Part shown: one piece after another, positions 439 through 26,920 of the stretch | Numbering within the stretch: the stretch's first letter is position 1 | How the letters are laid out: each line of letters starts with the position of its first letter | Origin: Rubrivivax sp. | Lineage (GTDB): Bacteria; Pseudomonadota; Gammaproteobacteria; Burkholderiales; Burkholderiaceae_C | Reading direction: 5' to 3' | Assembly: GCA_016789865.1 (NCBI GenBank) | Contig: JAEUPC010000189.1 | Location: forward strand, 1 to 35,544 | Length of the DNA stretch: 35,544 bases | Notes under the pieces: generated by a model | Database searches by the model: none | What the model was told of the DNA's origin: nothing | Seen by the model: the letters and a program-made list of their open reading frames with translations, nothing else | Position numbers and translations under genes: made by a program

Positions 439-3210
439 TCACCTGGCGGCCTGCAGCTTGCGCAGCACCTCGCGCTGGTGCTCCACCACCCAGGGCCAGG
501 TGCCTTTGTTCGGCATCGCCTCCAGGGCCGCCTGCATCATCTCGAGGCCGCGGCTGCGTTCACCGAGCATCCACCGGGCGCGGCCGATCTCGAAGTCGAT
601 GCGCTCGAGCGCCTCGGGCCAGTTGGACGTGTAGTAGTCCAGACCGCGGATCGACTCCAGCAAGGCGATCGCTTCCCTTGGGCGACCCAGGCCGGTCAGT
701 GAGTGGGCGCGCCCGAATTCGATCCAGCCGCGGAAGGGCCGCCGATTGCCGTAGGCGCGGGTCTGGATGGCGTTGGCTTCGTCGTAGAGCGCCAAAGCGC
801 GCACGATGTCGCCCTGCAGGGCCACGATGCCGGCGCGGTCGAGTTGGGTCACGATGACGTACTGGTGGTCTTCGCCCATCGCACGTCGGAACAGCGCCTG
901 GGCGCGCTCGCTCGATCGCAGTGCGGGCTCGAGGCGTCCGAGCCGGTAGTTGGTGGTCGAGACCTCGAACTCCGCCCAGGCGGCGTAGAACTCGTTGCGC
1001 CCCTCCCCCGCTCGGTCCATCCAGTCGCGGGCCTGCTCGAACTCGGCCAGCGCTTCATCCAGCCGCCCGGCCTGTCGAGCCCGCTCACCGCGGTTGATAT
1101 GGACGTTGGCGTGCGCTTCGTGGGCTGCGGTCTTGACCAGGTAGGGTGGTGCAGCCAATCGGGCGAAAGCCGCCTGGGCCTCGGCGTCGTTCTCCATGGC
1201 GACCGCGACCTCGCCCACGCGGCGCAGGGCATCGACTCGTTCGGGGCTCCCCTCGCGCGTGAGGGCTTCGACGATCTGAAGAAGCCGCCGGGCCTGCGGT
1301 GCCGCTTCGGCGTGTCGATGCGAGAACATCAGCAGCTCATGCCGCGCCCGCGAGGCGAGCATCGCCAGCTCCGAAGGCCTGTCCAGGCGCGCCGGCCCGG
1401 CCAGCTGTTCGGCGCCTTCCAGCTCGGCGAAGCCTTCGCGGGTGGCTGGCAGGAATGCGAGTATCCGTGCGTTCACGAACCGGGCGGCGAGCAGTTCACC
1501 GTCCGACTCGGCGGCGTGCTTGCCCAGCAGCGTGAGGCTCTTGTTGATCTCGGCGCGGGCGTCCGGCCATGCCGCCGCCTTCATGTACGCCTCGGCCAGC
1601 CGCCTGCGCATCGCGCCTTCGATGCGCGGCTGGTCCGCAAATCGTTCGCTCGCTCTCAGCGACGCCTTCCTCAGCACTTGCAGCAAGGTGGTGGGTTCGG
1701 TGGCCGCGCGCATCGCCTCGCGCTCGGGCGCCTCCAGCACGTCGCGGTGAAGGAACTCGCTGATGGCCTGCGCGTTGGTCGCGGCTTCCTGCGCTTGCTG
1801 GAGCGAGCCGCGCGAGGCGATGTAGAACCACAGCGTTCCCGCCAAGCCGACAACCAAGCTGGCAAATGCAGCGGTGAGCCAGGGCCTGCGCGCTCTTCGG
1901 CGCTGGAGTTCCGCAGTCAGTTGCGCCTGCTGCGCTGCCGCCAGGCTTGCAGCCTTTCGATCGGCCCGACGCGCCTGCAGCGCGCCCAGCCGCCCGACGA
2001 GCTCCCGCACGCTTGCCACGCGCCGCGCGGCGTCCCCTTGTGTCGCGGCCGCCACGTCCTCTTGCAGCAGCTCATCGTTGACGTCGCGCTGCCAGCCGGT
2101 GGCCAACGGCCGCTTCAGCTCACCGGCCAGCAGCTGGTACAGCATCACCCCCAGCGCATAGACATCGCTCTTCACCGTGGCCCCGTGCCCGCCCAGCAGT
2201 TCGGGCGCCAGATACATCGCGGTGCCGCCGAGCGCCTGCGGGTCGGTGGCCGCGCTCACCGTCAGGCCCATCGCGGTGAGGCCCAGGTGGTGCAGCCGTT
2301 CGGCATCCAGCACATGCCCGCTGCCGAAGTCGGTGAGCACGGGCCGCCACGCGCCCGGCTCGCCGCCCATCAGCACGTTGGCCGGCTTGATGTCCTTGTG
2401 CAGCACGCCCACTTCATGCGCCGCGGCCACGGCTTCGGCGATGGGCATGAACAACGCCAGCCGCTCGTCCACCGTCATCGCGGCGAGGCGACCTTCTTCC
2501 TCGGCGGCCCAGGCCACCAGGTCGGGGCCTTCGTATTCGCATTCCAGGAAGAACGGCGGCTCGGCGAAGTTGGCGTCGACCAGCCGCGCCACGCCAGGCG
2601 GCGCTTCCTGCGGCTGCTCGGCACGCAGCACGCGGTGCAGCGTGAACTCGCGCTTCAACGAGCGCAGCCGTTCGGCATCGGTGGCGAACTTGAACACCCT
2701 TGGCTGGTGCAGTTGCCGGTGGCGGGCCAGCCACACGAGACCGCGCCCATCCAACGCCCGCTCGAGGCGATAGCCCTCGCGGCCGGGCACGGCCTGGCCC
2801 GGCTGCAGGTCGAGCGTGGCGTCGGCCAGTCGACCCACGACCACGCGCTCCACCGTGCCGCTGAAGCGGTAGCCCACGCGCGGCACGTTGACGATGCGCG
2901 CCCCGGCCTGCGGCCCCAGCGCCTTGCGCAGCTTGTTCACGGCGCTGGCCAGCACGTGATCAACCGTGATGCGGCCCGCCCACACTGCCTCGAACAGCTC
3001 GTCCTTGGTCACCACCTCGTTGGGGCGGCGCAGCAGTTCGGCCAGCAGCTGCAACGGGCGCGGCTCCACCGCCACCGGCTGGCCCTGCACGCGCAGCGCC
3101 GACTGCGCCTCGTCGAACTCGGCGTCGTCGAAACGGTAGCGAAAGCTCAGCGCGCGGCCCGCGGCGGCGCCATCTTGATCAGGTCCCTGCTCATGCTCGG
3201 CGCTGGACAT
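439..3210 (-). CDS. Membrane Ser/Thr protein kinase with N-terminal winged-helix DNA-binding domain and C-terminal TPR-like region
   Basis: The protein has 923 residues. Residues about 22-117 form an OmpR/PhoB-type winged helix (Trans_reg_C), with the recognition-helix segment 'VNKLRKALG' and the terminal hairpin 'VPRVGYRFSG'. Residues about 147-400 are a Hanks-type kinase with a visible VFKFA lysine (K174), αC Glu (E188), catalytic loop HKDIKPAN (D273, N278), DFG (294-296) and APE (335-337), so it looks active. A single membrane segment follows at about 444-466. The remaining 450 residues are Ala/Leu-rich helical repeats of TPR type, predicted to lie outside the cytoplasm. The likely role is a membrane sensor that binds DNA and phosphorylates Ser/Thr; that role is inferred from the architecture. 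It is the last gene of a leftward set after two lipoprotein genes. The start chosen is the only ATG before the winged helix. Confidence 0.88.
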   Translation of the reverse strand: MSSAEHEQGPDQDGAAAGRALSFRYRFDDAEFDEAQSALRVQGQPVAVEPRPLQLLAELLRRPNEVVTKDELFEAVWAGRITVDHVLASAVNKLRKALGPQAGARIVNVPRVGYRFSGTVERVVVGRLADATLDLQPGQAVPGREGYRLERALDGRGLVWLARHRQLHQPRVFKFATDAERLRSLKREFTLHRVLRAEQPQEAPPGVARLVDANFAEPPFFLECEYEGPDLVAWAAEEEGRLAAMTVDERLALFMPIAEAVAAAHEVGVLHKDIKPANVLMGGEPGAWRPVLTDFGSGHVLDAERLHHLGLTAMGLTVSAATDPQALGGTAMYLAPELLGGHGATVKSDVYALGVMLYQLLAGELKRPLATGWQRDVNDELLQEDVAAATQGDAARRVASVRELVGRLGALQARRADRKAASLAAAQQAQLTAELQRRRARRPWLTAAFASLVVGLAGTLWFYIASRGSLQQAQEAATNAQAISEFLHRDVLEAPEREAMRAATEPTTLLQVLRKASLRASERFADQPRIEGAMRRRLAEAYMKAAAWPDARAEINKSLTLLGKHAAESDGELLAARFVNARILAFLPATREGFAELEGAEQLAGPARLDRPSELAMLASRARHELLMFSHRHAEAAPQARRLLQIVEALTREGSPERVDALRRVGEVAVAMENDAEAQAAFARLAAPPYLVKTAAHEAHANVHINRGERARQAGRLDEALAEFEQARDWMDRAGEGRNEFYAAWAEFEVSTTNYRLGRLEPALRSSERAQALFRRAMGEDHQYVIVTQLDRAGIVALQGDIVRALALYDEANAIQTRAYGNRRPFRGWIEFGRAHSLTGLGRPREAIALLESIRGLDYYTSNWPEALERIDFEIGRARWMLGERSRGLEMMQAALEAMPNKGTWPWVVEHQREVLRKLQAAR

Positions 3211-6977: not shown

Positions 6978-6982
6978 GGAGG
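6978..6982 (+). promoter_or_regulatory. Shine-Dalgarno setting the start of the oxidase fusion
   Basis: GGAGG five nt before ATG 6988. This favours 6988 over the in-frame ATG at 6949, which has no such site. The gap 6807-6987 otherwise holds GGCGCC-rich palindromic sequence just after the Bug stop, and a less GC-rich stretch around 6915-6955 that could hold a promoter. Confidence 0.6.
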
Positions 6983-6987
6983 ACCTC

Positions 6988-9900
6988 ATGCGCTACCACA
7001 TCAAGGGCCGTGTCATCGACGAATTCAGCGGCGAAGGCCTCGCCGGGGTCCGCGTCGAAGCGTGGGACAAGGACTTCCTGATCGCCGACGACCATCTCGG
7101 CTCGGCGACCACGCTCACCGACGGCAGCTTCGACATCACGTTCGACGAGGCCGCGTTCCGCGACCTGTTCTTCGACAGCCGACCGGACCTGTACTTCAAG
7201 GTCTGGTGCAACGGCGCCCTGCTGGCCAGCACCGAGAACTCGGTGCGCTGGAACGTCGCGCAACACGACATCGGCGTCGAGATCAAGTGCCCGCACCCGC
7301 CGGCGGCCGCGCCGGTGGAACGCCACATCTACTTGAAGATCGAGCGGCTGGAGCACTACAGCCCCGTGCGCCCGCAGGAGAAGGTGGTGCCGCCGGTGCG
7401 CTACGGCCGCGACTGCATGCGCAACCACGGCCACGAGAACGGCCTCATCCCCAACGCCGAGATCGAGGCACGCGCGCTCGACGCGGTGATCTACCGCGAG
7501 TACCTCGACTCGGCCTATCTGGTGCCGAAGTCGGCCAAGCTCATCGACGCGGATGTCAACGAGCCTTCGTGGGCGCACCGCGTTCCGGGCACGGTGATCT
7601 ACACCCACCCGGGCCAGCGGCTGAAAGTCCATGTCTGGAACGGCGACGACGTGCCCCACTCGCTGCACGTGCACGGCCTGCGCTACGGCATCGACTCCGA
7701 CGGCTCGTGGCCGTTCGGCACCGAAGCCGCCCACCACGGCGGGCGCTCTGACGCCATCTGCCCCGATGGCAGCTGGACCTACACCTTCGATGTCCCCGAA
7801 GACGCGCTGGGCGCCTGGCCGTTCCACGACCACACGCACCACGCGTCGATGAAGATCGACCAGGGTCTGTTCGGCGGCATCGTCGTGCTCGGCCGCTGCG
7901 ACCGCCCGCCGCGGCGCTTCGTCTTCCCGTGGCAGGTGCTGCGGCCGATCTACCTGGATGTGGCGCGCTGGCAGGGGCTGAAGCAGCCGTTCCCCCAACC
8001 GCCGCAAGACCGCCACGCGGGGCACGCCGAGGCCCCGGCACCGGCCGCGCAGGAGCGCCCCGCGCCCGATGCCGACGAAGTCATCGCCGTCGTGCCGCAG
8101 CTGCACCGCCGGCGCCTGAAGCCGGCGGCGCACGAGATCCTGTTGCAGCACCTGGACTTCCTCGAGGAGTTCACGGTCAAGGAGCTGGCGCTGCCCAGGC
8201 GCGTGATCAACACCGACCATGTGCCGGTGTTCCTGCACGTGATGAGCAACCCGGACTCCCGCCCGGTCTTCGACACCGACGACATCCACGAGCTGGGCGG
8301 CGAGGCCGAACTCGAGTTCCCGGTGGCTGGCGACTACACGTACTTCTGCCGCCATCACCCCGAGATGACCGGCACCGTGCACGTGGTTCCGGGCGGGCCC
8401 GACCCGGTGACGGTGACCATCACGCCCGGCGCGCCGGCCGCGTTCAGCCCGGCCGAAGTCACCGTGGGGGCCGGCGGCAGCGTGCGCTGGATCAACAACA
8501 CCATCGACCACCATACCGTCACCTCCACCGCCGGTGCGGCGATGAGCACGCACTGCATCAACGGCCGCGGCTTCGTCGGCAACACGCCCACCATCGTCGG
8601 GCGCAGCGGGCAGCGCATCCGCTGGTATGTCTTCAATCTCGACACCAGCACCAACTGGCACAACTTCCACCCGCACGCGATGCGCTGGCGCTTCGCCGGG
8701 CAGAACGTGGACATCCGCAGCCTCGGCCCGGCCGAGTCGTTCGTCGTCGAGTCGGAGATTCCGCCGGTGCTGCTGCTCACCGCCGACGAGGAGCGTGCGC
8801 AGGACCCGGACCATCGGCCCGCGGGCGCCACGCTGCGCCGCCTGAAGGGCGACTTCGTCTTCCACTGCCACGTGCACCATCACATGATGAACGGCATGGT
8901 GGGGCTGGTGCGCGCCCGCCGGAGCCTTTGGCTCACCGATGACATGGCGCACGAGATCAGCCACCGCACCGGCCTGCCGCTGGACGACGGCGGCAACGCC
9001 TGCCCCGATGTCGACGCCCACCCCTGCATGCACCACGGCAGCGGCCGCTGGGAAGAGGTGGCCGGCGCGCCACAGGTGGCGTTCATGCACGCGGTGCTGC
9101 TGCCCCACACCGAGCGCGTGCTGTTCTGGGGCTACACGCGTGCCGACCAATCGCGCGTGTGGGACTACTCCACCGCCGCCGGCAGCTACCTGCTGCCGGC
9201 CAACCAGCCGGCCGACTCACCCGGGCTGGACATCAACAGCTCGAACATGTGGTCGGCGCAGCACACGGTGCTGGACGACGCCGCCGGCAGCGTGCTGGTG
9301 CATGGGGGCTTCTCCCCCGACAAGAGCTTCCTCTTCGACCCCGCCACGCTCACCTGGAGCCGCACGGCCGACACCGCCGACGACCGCTTCTATTCGACGA
9401 CGCTGACGCGCGGCGACGGCAAGGCCGTGACGCTGTACGGTTCGGGCTCGAAGTCGGTCGAGGTGTACACGCCGGGCGGTGGCTGGGCTGCACCAATCGC
9501 CATGCCGGCCGGCATGAACCACCACCAGTACTACCCGTGGACCTACGTGCTGCCAGATGGGCAACTGTTCATCGCCGGCCCGCACGTGCCCACGAACCGC
9601 TTCGACCTCGCTGCACCCGCGGCGGCCGTGGCCTTCAACACGCTCGCCGGCAACCGCAGCACCGGCGGCGAGAAAGGCAGCTCGGTGATGCTGATGGTGC
9701 GCCCGCCGTCGCACAAGCCGGTGGTGACCATCCTCGGCGGCAACCCGGCGCCGGCGCAGAAGAGCGTGGAGATGATCGACCTGTCGGCCGCCACCCCGGC
9801 CTGGGTGGCCTGGCCCGACATGAACCTCGCGCGCGCCCAGCAGTTCACGGCCACCCTGCTGCCCGATGGGCGCATCTTCGTCGCCGGCGGCATCACCGGC

Positions 9901-10404
9901 GGCGCCGACGGCGGCGCCTGCGAGATCTTCGACCCGCGAAACCCCGCCGCCGGCTGGGTGCTCGGCCGGCCGATGAAGTACGCGCGCTCCTACCACTCGG
10001 CCTTCATCCTGCTGCCCGACGGCAGCGTGCTTGGCGGCGGCGACCCCGGCGGGCCGGCCGGGCCCACGCCCCACGAGCGCTTCTACCCGGACTACTTCGA
10101 GCAGATGCGGCCGAACATCGGCGCCGCACCGGCCACCCTGCACTACGGCAGCGCGTTCAGCGTGGGCACGCCGCAGGCCTCCGAGATCACCGAGGTGGTG
10201 CTGCTGCGCGGCGGAACGGTCACGCACGGCTTCAACATGTCGCAGCGCGGCCTGGAGTGCGAGATCACAGGTGTGAACGCGGCCAGCGTGGATGCCGTGC
10301 TGCCGGCCAACGCCAACCTGGCGCCGCCGGGCTGGTACCTGCTGTTCGTGCTCAATGCCAGCCGGGTGCCTTCAACGGGGCGGTGGGTGCGGGTGACCGT
10401 GTGA
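6988..10404 (+). CDS. Multidomain copper oxidase: transthyretin-like + multicopper oxidase/cupredoxins + galactose-oxidase-like domain
   Basis: The protein has 1138 residues. Residues 3-98 resemble a transthyretin-like beta domain. A multicopper oxidase part follows, with His pairs at H227/H229 and H280/H282, a plastocyanin-like C454-x2-H457-x2-M460 site, a further cupredoxin, then HxH at 561/563 and the classic HCH-x3-H-x4-M signature (626-637). Type 1, 2 and 3 copper ligands are therefore visible. From about 690 a kelch-type propeller begins, and 1042-1138 is the DUF1929/GlxA-like cap. Galactose-oxidase copper-site equivalents are Y802, Y1002-H1003 and H1080, but the Cys of the Cys-Tyr cofactor is replaced by Ser756. 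No signal peptide is visible from either candidate start. The substrate is unknown; coupling of two copper oxidations in one chain is inference. Confidence 0.88.
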   Translation: MRYHIKGRVIDEFSGEGLAGVRVEAWDKDFLIADDHLGSATTLTDGSFDITFDEAAFRDLFFDSRPDLYFKVWCNGALLASTENSVRWNVAQHDIGVEIKCPHPPAAAPVERHIYLKIERLEHYSPVRPQEKVVPPVRYGRDCMRNHGHENGLIPNAEIEARALDAVIYREYLDSAYLVPKSAKLIDADVNEPSWAHRVPGTVIYTHPGQRLKVHVWNGDDVPHSLHVHGLRYGIDSDGSWPFGTEAAHHGGRSDAICPDGSWTYTFDVPEDALGAWPFHDHTHHASMKIDQGLFGGIVVLGRCDRPPRRFVFPWQVLRPIYLDVARWQGLKQPFPQPPQDRHAGHAEAPAPAAQERPAPDADEVIAVVPQLHRRRLKPAAHEILLQHLDFLEEFTVKELALPRRVINTDHVPVFLHVMSNPDSRPVFDTDDIHELGGEAELEFPVAGDYTYFCRHHPEMTGTVHVVPGGPDPVTVTITPGAPAAFSPAEVTVGAGGSVRWINNTIDHHTVTSTAGAAMSTHCINGRGFVGNTPTIVGRSGQRIRWYVFNLDTSTNWHNFHPHAMRWRFAGQNVDIRSLGPAESFVVESEIPPVLLLTADEERAQDPDHRPAGATLRRLKGDFVFHCHVHHHMMNGMVGLVRARRSLWLTDDMAHEISHRTGLPLDDGGNACPDVDAHPCMHHGSGRWEEVAGAPQVAFMHAVLLPHTERVLFWGYTRADQSRVWDYSTAAGSYLLPANQPADSPGLDINSSNMWSAQHTVLDDAAGSVLVHGGFSPDKSFLFDPATLTWSRTADTADDRFYSTTLTRGDGKAVTLYGSGSKSVEVYTPGGGWAAPIAMPAGMNHHQYYPWTYVLPDGQLFIAGPHVPTNRFDLAAPAAAVAFNTLAGNRSTGGEKGSSVMLMVRPPSHKPVVTILGGNPAPAQKSVEMIDLSAATPAWVAWPDMNLARAQQFTATLLPDGRIFVAGGITGGADGGACEIFDPRNPAAGWVLGRPMKYARSYHSAFILLPDGSVLGGGDPGGPAGPTPHERFYPDYFEQMRPNIGAAPATLHYGSAFSVGTPQASEITEVVLLRGGTVTHGFNMSQRGLECEITGVNAASVDAVLPANANLAPPGWYLLFVLNASRVPSTGRWVRVTV

Positions 10405-25756: not shown

Positions 25757-26920
25757 TCAGCCGCGCAAGCTGTCGAACGGCGCCGGCCGGCCGGTGAGGT
25801 AGCCCTGCAGCAGGTCGAAGCCGATCTGCCGGCAGACCTCGGCCTCGGCCTCGGTCTCCACGCCCTCGGCCAGCGTCATCGAGCCCAGCTCCTTGCACAT
25901 GCGCACGAGGTCGCTGACCAGTTTCTGCTTGGCGCCGCTGGCCTCGTTGATGCCGTGCACGAGCCCGAAGTCGAACTTGACGAAGTGCGCCGGCACCTCG
26001 GCCAGCTCGTTCAGCCGCGCCTGGCCGGCGCCGAAGTCGTCGTAGGCGAAGCGCACGTTGAGGTCGGCCAGCTTGGCGGCCAGCTCGCGCATGCGCTCGA
26101 CCTCCATGACCGCCGTCTCATGGACCTCGATCACGAGGTCGAGCTTCAGGCCGTCGCGCGGCAGTCGCGACAGCGCCTCGAGGAAGCCGGGCTCGAAGGT
26201 CTCCTGCGGGTGGGTGTTCACGAACAGCGTGCTGCCCGGCGCCAGCTGCGCCACCGTGCGCACGCCGTGGTCGCGGAAGGCGCTGGACAGCTCGGCCTCG
26301 CGGCCCATGCGGGCGGCCAGCGCGAACAGGTGCACCGGCGAGGCCGGCAGCTCGGGGTGCGAGCTGCGGCCCAGCAACTCGAGGGCGAAGCGCTGGCCGC
26401 CCAGCGCCCGCACGATCGGCTGCACGGCGCCGCCGAGGCCAGCGCCGCCGAGCAGCTCGTTCATCTGCTTCTCGTGCGGCACGAAGTGGCCCGACAGCTG
26501 CGCGCCGGCCGGCGCGATCATCGTGCGGTCGGCGTTGACCGGAATGGTGGCGCTGCCCAGCACGCCGAGGCGGAACTCGGCGTTGCCGAAGTGGATGACG
26601 TCGTTCTCGTCGAGCACGCGCGCGGCGGCCAGCCGCACGCGGTTCACGTAGGTGCCGTTGGTGCTGCCGAGGTCGGTGAGGCGCAGCCGCCCGTCCTCGG
26701 TGGCCACCAGCACGGCATGCTGGCGCGACATGCCCGGCGCCGCCAGCGCCAGCTCGTTGCCGGCATCGCGCCCGACGCGAAACGGCACCAACGCCACCTC
26801 GTGCACCGTGTGCGAGCCGTCGGCCGCCACGCCCTCGAGGAACCAACGCCGGGCCGTGGGCGAGGGGCTGGGCGCGGCGGCGCTCTCGGCGCCGTGGCCC
26901 ATGGCTTCCGTTGCACCCAT
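25757..26920 (-). CDS. FHA-EAL protein (phosphothreonine-binding domain fused to c-di-GMP phosphodiesterase domain)
   Basis: A 387-residue soluble protein. Residues about 25-120 are an FHA domain with all marker residues: GR (50-51), SRQH (65-68) and GSTNGT (85-90). Residues about 150-387 are an EAL domain. The signature reads E181-L-L instead of EAL, but N235, E265, DD (294-295), K315, E352 and Q372 are at the expected places, so activity is plausible. EAL enzymes hydrolyse c-di-GMP; FHA domains bind phosphothreonine on partners. This implies c-di-GMP turnover controlled by Ser/Thr phosphorylation, which is inference. The start lacks a clear Shine-Dalgarno; ATG at residue 7 is an alternative. 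The 152-bp upstream gap (26921-27072) should hold its promoter, but no boxes are obvious. Confidence 0.88.
   Translation of the reverse strand: MGATEAMGHGAESAAAPSPSPTARRWFLEGVAADGSHTVHEVALVPFRVGRDAGNELALAAPGMSRQHAVLVATEDGRLRLTDLGSTNGTYVNRVRLAAARVLDENDVIHFGNAEFRLGVLGSATIPVNADRTMIAPAGAQLSGHFVPHEKQMNELLGGAGLGGAVQPIVRALGGQRFALELLGRSSHPELPASPVHLFALAARMGREAELSSAFRDHGVRTVAQLAPGSTLFVNTHPQETFEPGFLEALSRLPRDGLKLDLVIEVHETAVMEVERMRELAAKLADLNVRFAYDDFGAGQARLNELAEVPAHFVKFDFGLVHGINEASGAKQKLVSDLVRMCKELGSMTLAEGVETEAEAEVCRQIGFDLLQGYLTGRPAPFDSLRG

What the first reader, a model, noticed from the sequence alone, without database searches (positions are those of the whole stretch)
6988..10404. Multicopper oxidase fused to a galactose-oxidase-like copper domain
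One 1138-residue chain holds a transthyretin-like domain, multicopper oxidase sites (HCH-x3-H-x4-M), a separate plastocyanin-like C-x2-H-x2-M site and a GlxA-like propeller with cap. Multicopper oxidases reduce O2 to water, while galactose-oxidase-type enzymes make H2O2. Joining them could create internal electron transfer or a polymer-modifying enzyme.
Basis: partly seen in the sequence, partly recalled or inferred. Interest (0 to 1): 0.7.

Follow-up and report, generated by a model that had tools for sequence, protein, structure and literature searches.

The report
Copper oxidase fused to oxidase-like propeller
A bacterium carries one very large copper protein that joins a multicopper oxidase, an extra electron-carrying copper domain whose two halves are in swapped order, and a propeller that resembles galactose oxidase but lacks the cysteine needed for that enzyme's usual chemistry; related proteins turn up scattered across distant bacteria and one archaeon.

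Summary
Window 6988-10404 (+) is one intact 1138-residue gene: a TTR-like domain, a multicopper oxidase (MCO) core, an extra type-1 (T1) copper domain and a galactose-oxidase/GlxA-like propeller with E-set cap. The MCO-propeller fusion occurs in 13 other public contigs at 48-76% identity (Betaproteobacteria, Actinomycetota, Bacteroidota, a Nitrospirota MAG, a Nitrosopumilus MAG). It is rare and patchy: 1 of 398 phylum genomes and 3 of 399 family genomes, the window's own included in both.

(1) The propeller keeps both Tyr and both His ligands in 14 of 14 proteins, but the cysteine that makes the Tyr-Cys radical cofactor is serine in 14 of 14, whereas 8 of 8 comparison propellers covering the site keep Cys. 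A classical H2O2-making radical oxidase is therefore unlikely. (2) The extra T1 domain reads C-terminal half first, then N-terminal half: an apparent circular permutation of a plastocyanin-type domain, placed between the two cupredoxin domains of a ceruloplasmin/two-domain-laccase-like MCO.

The MCO ligands are conserved (axial Met, one Leu). Most likely it is an active MCO with an added T1 relay and a cysteine-less propeller site. Substrate is unknown; copper distances could not be measured.

The parts
6978..6983 (+). GGAGGA, Shine-Dalgarno-like, four bases before ATG 6988
   Evidence: sequence read
6988..10404 (+). whole gene, 1138 aa, no signal peptide apparent
   Evidence: crude hydropathy maxima of the first 60 residues 0.35-1.00 in 14 rows (L006 lacks its true N-terminus) versus 1.93 for one TctC control and 1.03 for a second whose start is unsure
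6988..7302 (+). N-terminal transthyretin-like domain, residues 1-105
   Evidence: PF01060 3.2e-4, 21.7 bits, below its cut-off of 24.9; absent from L010-L012, replaced in L013, L006 cut; L020 matches only from residue 111
7315..7917 (+). MCO cupredoxin domain 1, residues 110-310; HVHG (H227, H229) and HDH (H280, H282) trinuclear-cluster ligands
   Evidence: PF07732 3.1e-9; invariant in 14 of 14
7918..8202 (+). variable helical linker, residues 311-405
   Evidence: highest dN/dS of the six regions in each of five pairs; helices in the models
8203..8544 (+). extra type-1 copper domain, residues 406-519, halves in permuted order; ligands H509, C454, H457, M460
   Evidence: PF00127 in two partial stretches natively, in one stretch when reordered; plastocyanin alignments; C454/H457/M460 in 14 of 14, H509 invariant
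8545..8952 (+). MCO last cupredoxin domain, residues 520-655; H558, H561, H563, H626-C627-H628, H632, M637
   Evidence: PF07731 4e-10; invariant in 14 of 14 except M637 = Leu in L012
9025..10107 (+). galactose-oxidase/GlxA-like kelch propeller, residues about 680-1040
   Evidence: phmmer and hmmsearch against PDB; Foldseek
9253..9255 (+). Ser756 codon, at the position of galactose oxidase Cys228
   Evidence: alignments to galactose oxidases; Ser in 14 of 14; Cys in 8 of 8 comparators
9391..9393 (+). Tyr802 codon (GO Tyr272 position)
9991..9996 (+). Tyr1002-His1003 codons (GO Tyr495-His496)
10108..10395 (+). GO-like early-set cap, residues 1041-1136, with His1080 (GO His581)
   Evidence: PF09118 6.2e-25; His1080 invariant

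Best explanation
This is a single-chain, multi-site copper oxidoreductase. Domain 1 and the last cupredoxin domain form a ceruloplasmin / two-domain-laccase-type MCO that takes electrons at its T1 copper (H558, C627, H632, M637) and reduces O2 to water at a trinuclear cluster (eight His). An extra plastocyanin-type T1 copper domain with its halves in permuted order lies between them and most likely relays electrons into the MCO. The C-terminal propeller keeps the 2-Tyr/2-His copper site of galactose oxidase but, with Ser for Cys, cannot form the Tyr-Cys radical cofactor. It therefore more likely serves as a substrate- or metal-binding site or an added one-electron copper site than as a classical H2O2-producing alcohol oxidase. 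The electron donor is probably a metal ion (Cu(I), Fe(II) or Mn(II)) or a phenol. Shown: domains, ligands, their conservation, loss of Cys, reversed order of the halves. Inferred: copper loading, relay, substrate and direction of electron flow.
Confidence: 0.5

Rival explanations
1. The propeller is a working alcohol/aldehyde radical oxidase with an unlinked Tyr radical, and the MCO is a separate catalytic head on the same chain.
For: Both Tyr and both His ligands are invariant in 14 of 14; the propeller is under purifying selection. An aldehyde dehydrogenase lies next to the gene in the window and in L005.
Against: Cys is Ser in 14 of 14. No Trp290 counterpart is seen in the alignments. Passages of PMC11267884 and PMC6519835 name the crosslinked Tyr-Cys as the redox cofactor of AA5 enzymes; recalled only: GO Cys228 variants lose nearly all activity. 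ALDH genes are common (recalled) and were seen beside 2 of 13 loci, the window counted (30 neighbours of 12 loci; L004 not scanned).
Confidence: 0.15
2. The propeller is a scaffold: its site binds copper or another metal for storage, sensing or substrate docking, and only the MCO is catalytic.
For: Loss of Cys with retention of the four ligands. Copper-handling genes lie near L009 (an ACR_tran RND pump with HlyD_D23+CusF_Ec partner, and DUF411) and L012 (HMA P-type ATPase, DUF326, another MCO).
Against: Such copper genes were seen at 2 of 12 loci scanned; metal binding was not tested.
Confidence: 0.3
3. The extra T1 region is not one permuted domain but two half-domains that pair with other parts of the chain or with a second subunit (strand swap).
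For: Two partial matches in native order; the C-half piece against 3bqv is not significant alone (i-E 25). H417 in a preceding strand is invariant and unexplained.
Against: The halves are complementary (about profile 3-45 and 59-98 of 99), adjacent, and together hold all four ligands; residues about 430-510 are among the better predicted parts of both models (block means 74-90).
Confidence: 0.2

Closest known systems
Two-domain laccases (e.g. Streptomyces SLAC, Ssl1) and the two-domain units of ceruloplasmin / factors V and VIII
   Same: The model's domain pair aligns with them; MCO copper ligands conserved; ceruloplasmin heads the MCO sequence matches
   Different: A linker and an extra permuted T1 domain sit between the two domains; a propeller follows; no signal peptide apparent
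Galactose oxidase (1gof) and GlxA (4unm), CAZy AA5
   Same: Best matches of the propeller by sequence and fold; four copper ligands and the E-set cap
   Different: The crosslinking Cys is Ser; no Trp290 counterpart seen; an MCO precedes the propeller; NCBIfam GlxA equivalog scores 104.8 against a cut-off of 800
Plastocyanin / amicyanin (PF00127)
   Same: Same ligand set, C-x2-H-x2-M spacing as in amicyanin (recalled); full-length match after reordering
   Different: The halves are in reversed order in the natural chain
Bacterial six-domain multicopper blue proteins and MnxG-type metal oxidases (passages of PMC3600357)
   Same: Ceruloplasmin-like relatives in bacteria and archaea
   Different: Two MCO cupredoxin domains plus one permuted T1 domain, not six; fused propeller; no direct sequence comparison was made here

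Membership tests
Multicopper oxidase (two-domain / ceruloplasmin type) | Eight trinuclear-cluster His in HxH, HxH, HxH, HCH motifs | tested here: met
   14 of 14 rows; PF07731 and PF07732 above cut-off
Multicopper oxidase (two-domain / ceruloplasmin type) | T1 site His-Cys-His plus axial Met/Leu/Phe | tested here: met
   H558, C627, H632 in 14 of 14; axial Met in 13, Leu in L012
Multicopper oxidase (two-domain / ceruloplasmin type) | Fold of the two-domain pair | tested here: met
Multicopper oxidase (two-domain / ceruloplasmin type) | Copper content and O2-to-water turnover | not testable with these tools
   needs protein
AA5 copper radical oxidase (GO/GlxA) | Kelch propeller plus E-set cap | tested here: met
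AA5 copper radical oxidase (GO/GlxA) | Copper ligands Tyr272, Tyr495, His496, His581 | tested here: met
   Y802, Y1002, H1003, H1080 in 14 of 14; residue roles from a passage of PMC6519835
AA5 copper radical oxidase (GO/GlxA) | Cys228 that crosslinks to Tyr272 | tested here: not met
   Ser in 14 of 14; Cys in 8 of 8 comparators that cover the site
GlxA equivalog NF052501 | score over 800 bits | tested here: not met
   104.8 bits
Plastocyanin/amicyanin T1 domain (PF00127) | one collinear N-to-C match with His...Cys-His-Met | tested here: not met
   ligands present, but the order of the halves is reversed
Transthyretin-like PF01060 | score over gathering cut-off 24.9 | tested here: not met
   21.7 bits
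Non-enzymatic kelch protein | closer to non-enzymatic kelch than to AA5 | tested here: not met
   AA5 6.8e-31 versus 2.4e-11 (designed SAKe) and 7.8e-11 (Keap1)

The most novel reading that the evidence does not exclude
A water-making alcohol oxidase. The propeller copper oxidises the substrate without a Tyr-Cys radical because the second electron is drained through the permuted T1 domain into the MCO trinuclear cluster, so O2 ends as H2O, not H2O2. The loss of Cys would then be the mark of a galactose-oxidase-type site rewired from direct O2 chemistry to internal electron transfer.
Probability: 0.1. Interest if true: 0.85.

Novelty: new variant of a known kind. Interest (0 to 1): 0.6.

Why it matters
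It is a natural, laterally scattered fusion of two classic copper-enzyme folds. It offers a natural family of galactose-oxidase-like sites without the Tyr-Cys crosslink, which makes the role of that crosslink testable outside engineered mutants, and an apparent natural circular permutation of a blue-copper domain within an MCO. Nine paper searches in the held library listed no paper that, by title and abstract start, describes this fusion or a naturally permuted cupredoxin. The lists were mostly capped (for example 20 of 106 and 12 of 170 papers) and the library is an open-access subset, so this is weak evidence of absence.

Tried and rejected
Conserved operon: all-against-all BLAST of ORFs (90 aa or more, flanks of at most 10 kb) from the window and 16 loci showed no neighbour shared across the family. 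Pairs seen were same-genus ones (L001/L003), tyrosinase-VWA (L002/L009), an unexamined L001/L009 pair, and common enzymes such as ALDH (window/L005), thiolase (L007/L013) and a P-type ATPase (L003 fragment/L012/L014). Operon-based function was dropped. Plasmid carriage: no hit of P0001 at 1e-20 in 72,556 plasmid records. Viral contigs: 19 pattern hits, 0 relatives. A role in manganese chemolithotrophy was considered because relatives include a Ramlibacter and a Troglogloeales MAG; PMC9040806 (three passages) mentions two MCOs per Manganitrophaceae genome and holds neither 'galactose' nor 'kelch', so I left it as a thought. The TTR domain as a widespread modular tag: 1 of 299 phylum genomes, only our own, has it. 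Tyrosinase-VWA in the window's genome: no match, and the tool warns that an empty answer without a positive control shows nothing. Whole-chain and 108-660 AlphaFold runs were meant to give copper distances; pLDDT was too low and no coordinates are offered. The permuted order as a clear score win: gains are only 1.0-4.0 bits, and phmmer E-values barely move (4.5e-6 versus 6.2e-6), so I rest on order and coverage. L003 was left out of the permutation test because it is nearly the same as L001; L012 gave one stretch, not two, in native order. A first count by regular expression missed the Cys of L025, which lies just behind an in-frame stop; alignment mended the count from 7 of 7 to 8 of 8.

Full report
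OBSERVATION. The gene at 6988-10404 (+) is intact and encodes 1138 residues. ATG 6988 is preceded by GGAGGA with four bases between. Codon-position G+C of the frame is 0.67/0.51/0.91, as expected of coding DNA in this high-G+C window. Pfam gives GO-like_E_set 1041-1136 (6.2e-25), Cu-oxidase_3 198-301, Copper-bind 430-466 and Cu-oxidase_2 514-574 as best stretch of two, all above their cut-offs. Glyoxal_oxid_N (753-910) and TTR-52 (16-89) are below theirs.

FAMILY. One scan of genome contigs found 16 loci. Thirteen carry the MCO-propeller protein: two Variovorax, Nitrosomonas nitrosa Nm90, Nitrosomonas Nm166 and Nm51, a Ramlibacter MAG, betaproteobacterium BroJett031, a Troglogloeales MAG, Piscinibacter caeni, two Lewinellaceae MAGs, a Nitrosopumilus MAG and Lentzea aerocolonigenes. 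The other three (L014-L016) match the N-terminal domain only. The scan is pattern-based and not exhaustive, and MAG assignments can be wrong. Identity to the window protein is 48-76%. L006 and L008 are cut by contig ends. The TTR-like domain is missing in L010, L011 and L012 and replaced in L013; L020 matches only from residue 111. The gene is rare at E 1e-60: 1 of 398 phylum genomes and 3 of 399 family genomes, the window's own included in both; none of the 5 other same-genus genomes listed has it; 1 of 8 in another genus. There was no plasmid match and no viral relative. In the tree of 15 proteins, Lentzea (Actinomycetota) groups with L020, from the window's own bacterial family, at 100/100, and Nitrosomonas Nm51 stands apart from the other two Nitrosomonas. 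This points to horizontal transfer. Six of 12 inner branches are well supported, and midpoint rooting is for drawing only.

EXTRA T1 DOMAIN, HALVES REVERSED. Between the two MCO domains, residues 406-470 match the end of the plastocyanin profile and 471-519 its start. In native order PF00127 gives two stretches in 12 of 13 rows tested and one in L012; the table prints only the better stretch of each, which is either the C-half early in the chain or the N-half late in it. Reordered, it gives a single stretch covering positions 3-9 to 98-99 of 99 in 13 of 13 (L003 not tested). Score gains are 1.0-4.0 bits; the weaker Cupredoxin_1 match fell slightly in L008 and L012. The plastocyanin 3bqv aligns to the natural chain as two pieces in crossed order, the second of them not significant alone (i-E 25), and to the reordered chain as one. 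Joining any two matching halves in the right order would let an aligner chain them, so this shows order, not by itself a single folded unit. For one unit speak the complementarity of the halves, the four invariant ligands H509, C454, H457 and M460, and the fair pLDDT of about residues 430-510 in both models (block means 74-90).

PROPELLER. The nearest solved proteins are galactose oxidases and GlxA. Foldseek gives 6.8e-31 for galactose oxidase, 2.1e-26 for GlxA, 2.4e-11 for the best non-AA5 propeller (designed SAKe) and 7.8e-11 for Keap1. Y802, Y1002, H1003 and H1080 sit at the four copper-ligand positions in 14 of 14 rows. The Cys228 position is Ser756 in 14 of 14. This placing rests on the galactose-oxidase alignments; in GlxA the stretch with the Cys aligns only as a separate weak piece (3.1 bits), which also shows that the invariant His three residues on is shared with GlxA. 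Of nine other PF09118 proteins from 249 phylum genomes, eight cover the site and all eight have Cys and the same four ligands; L031 is cut by its contig end. One of the eight, L025, has an in-frame stop just before the site. Residue roles come from passages of PMC6519835; the crosslinked cofactor from passages of PMC11267884.

NEIGHBOURHOOD. Window neighbours are a TctC receptor upstream and an aldehyde dehydrogenase, a TctC receptor, a PaaZ-type bifunctional enzyme and MFS transporters downstream. None is conserved with the gene across the family; only an ALDH recurs, at L005. In 30 neighbours from 12 loci (L004 not scanned) I saw copper-handling genes at L009 and L012 and tyrosinase-VWA proteins at L002 and L009. 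This is suggestive only.

SELECTION AND LOCATION. The modules, the propeller included, are under purifying selection in five pairs. No N-terminal hydrophobic segment like a signal peptide is seen (0.35-1.00 in 14 rows, of which L006 lacks its true start), against 1.93 in one TctC control; the second control, whose start is unsure, gave 1.03, so this crude measure is not decisive.

VERDICT. The fusion is real, conserved and rare. It looks like an MCO with an added blue-copper relay and a galactose-oxidase-like site that fails the membership test for a copper radical oxidase. Whether the sites talk to each other is open.

Noticed in passing
L002:4650-7760 (+) and L009:6653-9493 (-): A 946-1036-residue tyrosinase plus von Willebrand A protein lies near the fusion gene in two different genera, a second large copper-type protein with no obvious signal peptide by eye. 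No match was found in the window's genome (without a positive control).
   Followed up: partly
window 439-3210 (-): One protein with a winged-helix Trans_reg_C domain, a protein kinase domain whose best stretch covers only profile positions 94-195 of 263, and TPR repeats.
   Followed up: no
window 25757-26920 (-): FHA domain fused to an EAL domain.
   Followed up: no
L014:9980-10609, L015:9932-19300, L016:9971-12829: The TTR-like N-terminal domain also caps unrelated proteins: a short one, a large one that by eye looks Tc-toxin-A-like, and one that by eye looks like a metalloprotease. Not tested by any library.
   Followed up: partly
G000:C241:20-886 (L018/L031): The same genome holds a second galactose-oxidase-like protein, 33% identical to residues 849-1138, followed by further domains; its start and Cys site are cut off by the contig end.
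   Followed up: partly
window 8236-8238 (H417): An invariant His in the strand before the permuted T1 domain, with no role assigned.
   Followed up: no
   Followed up: no
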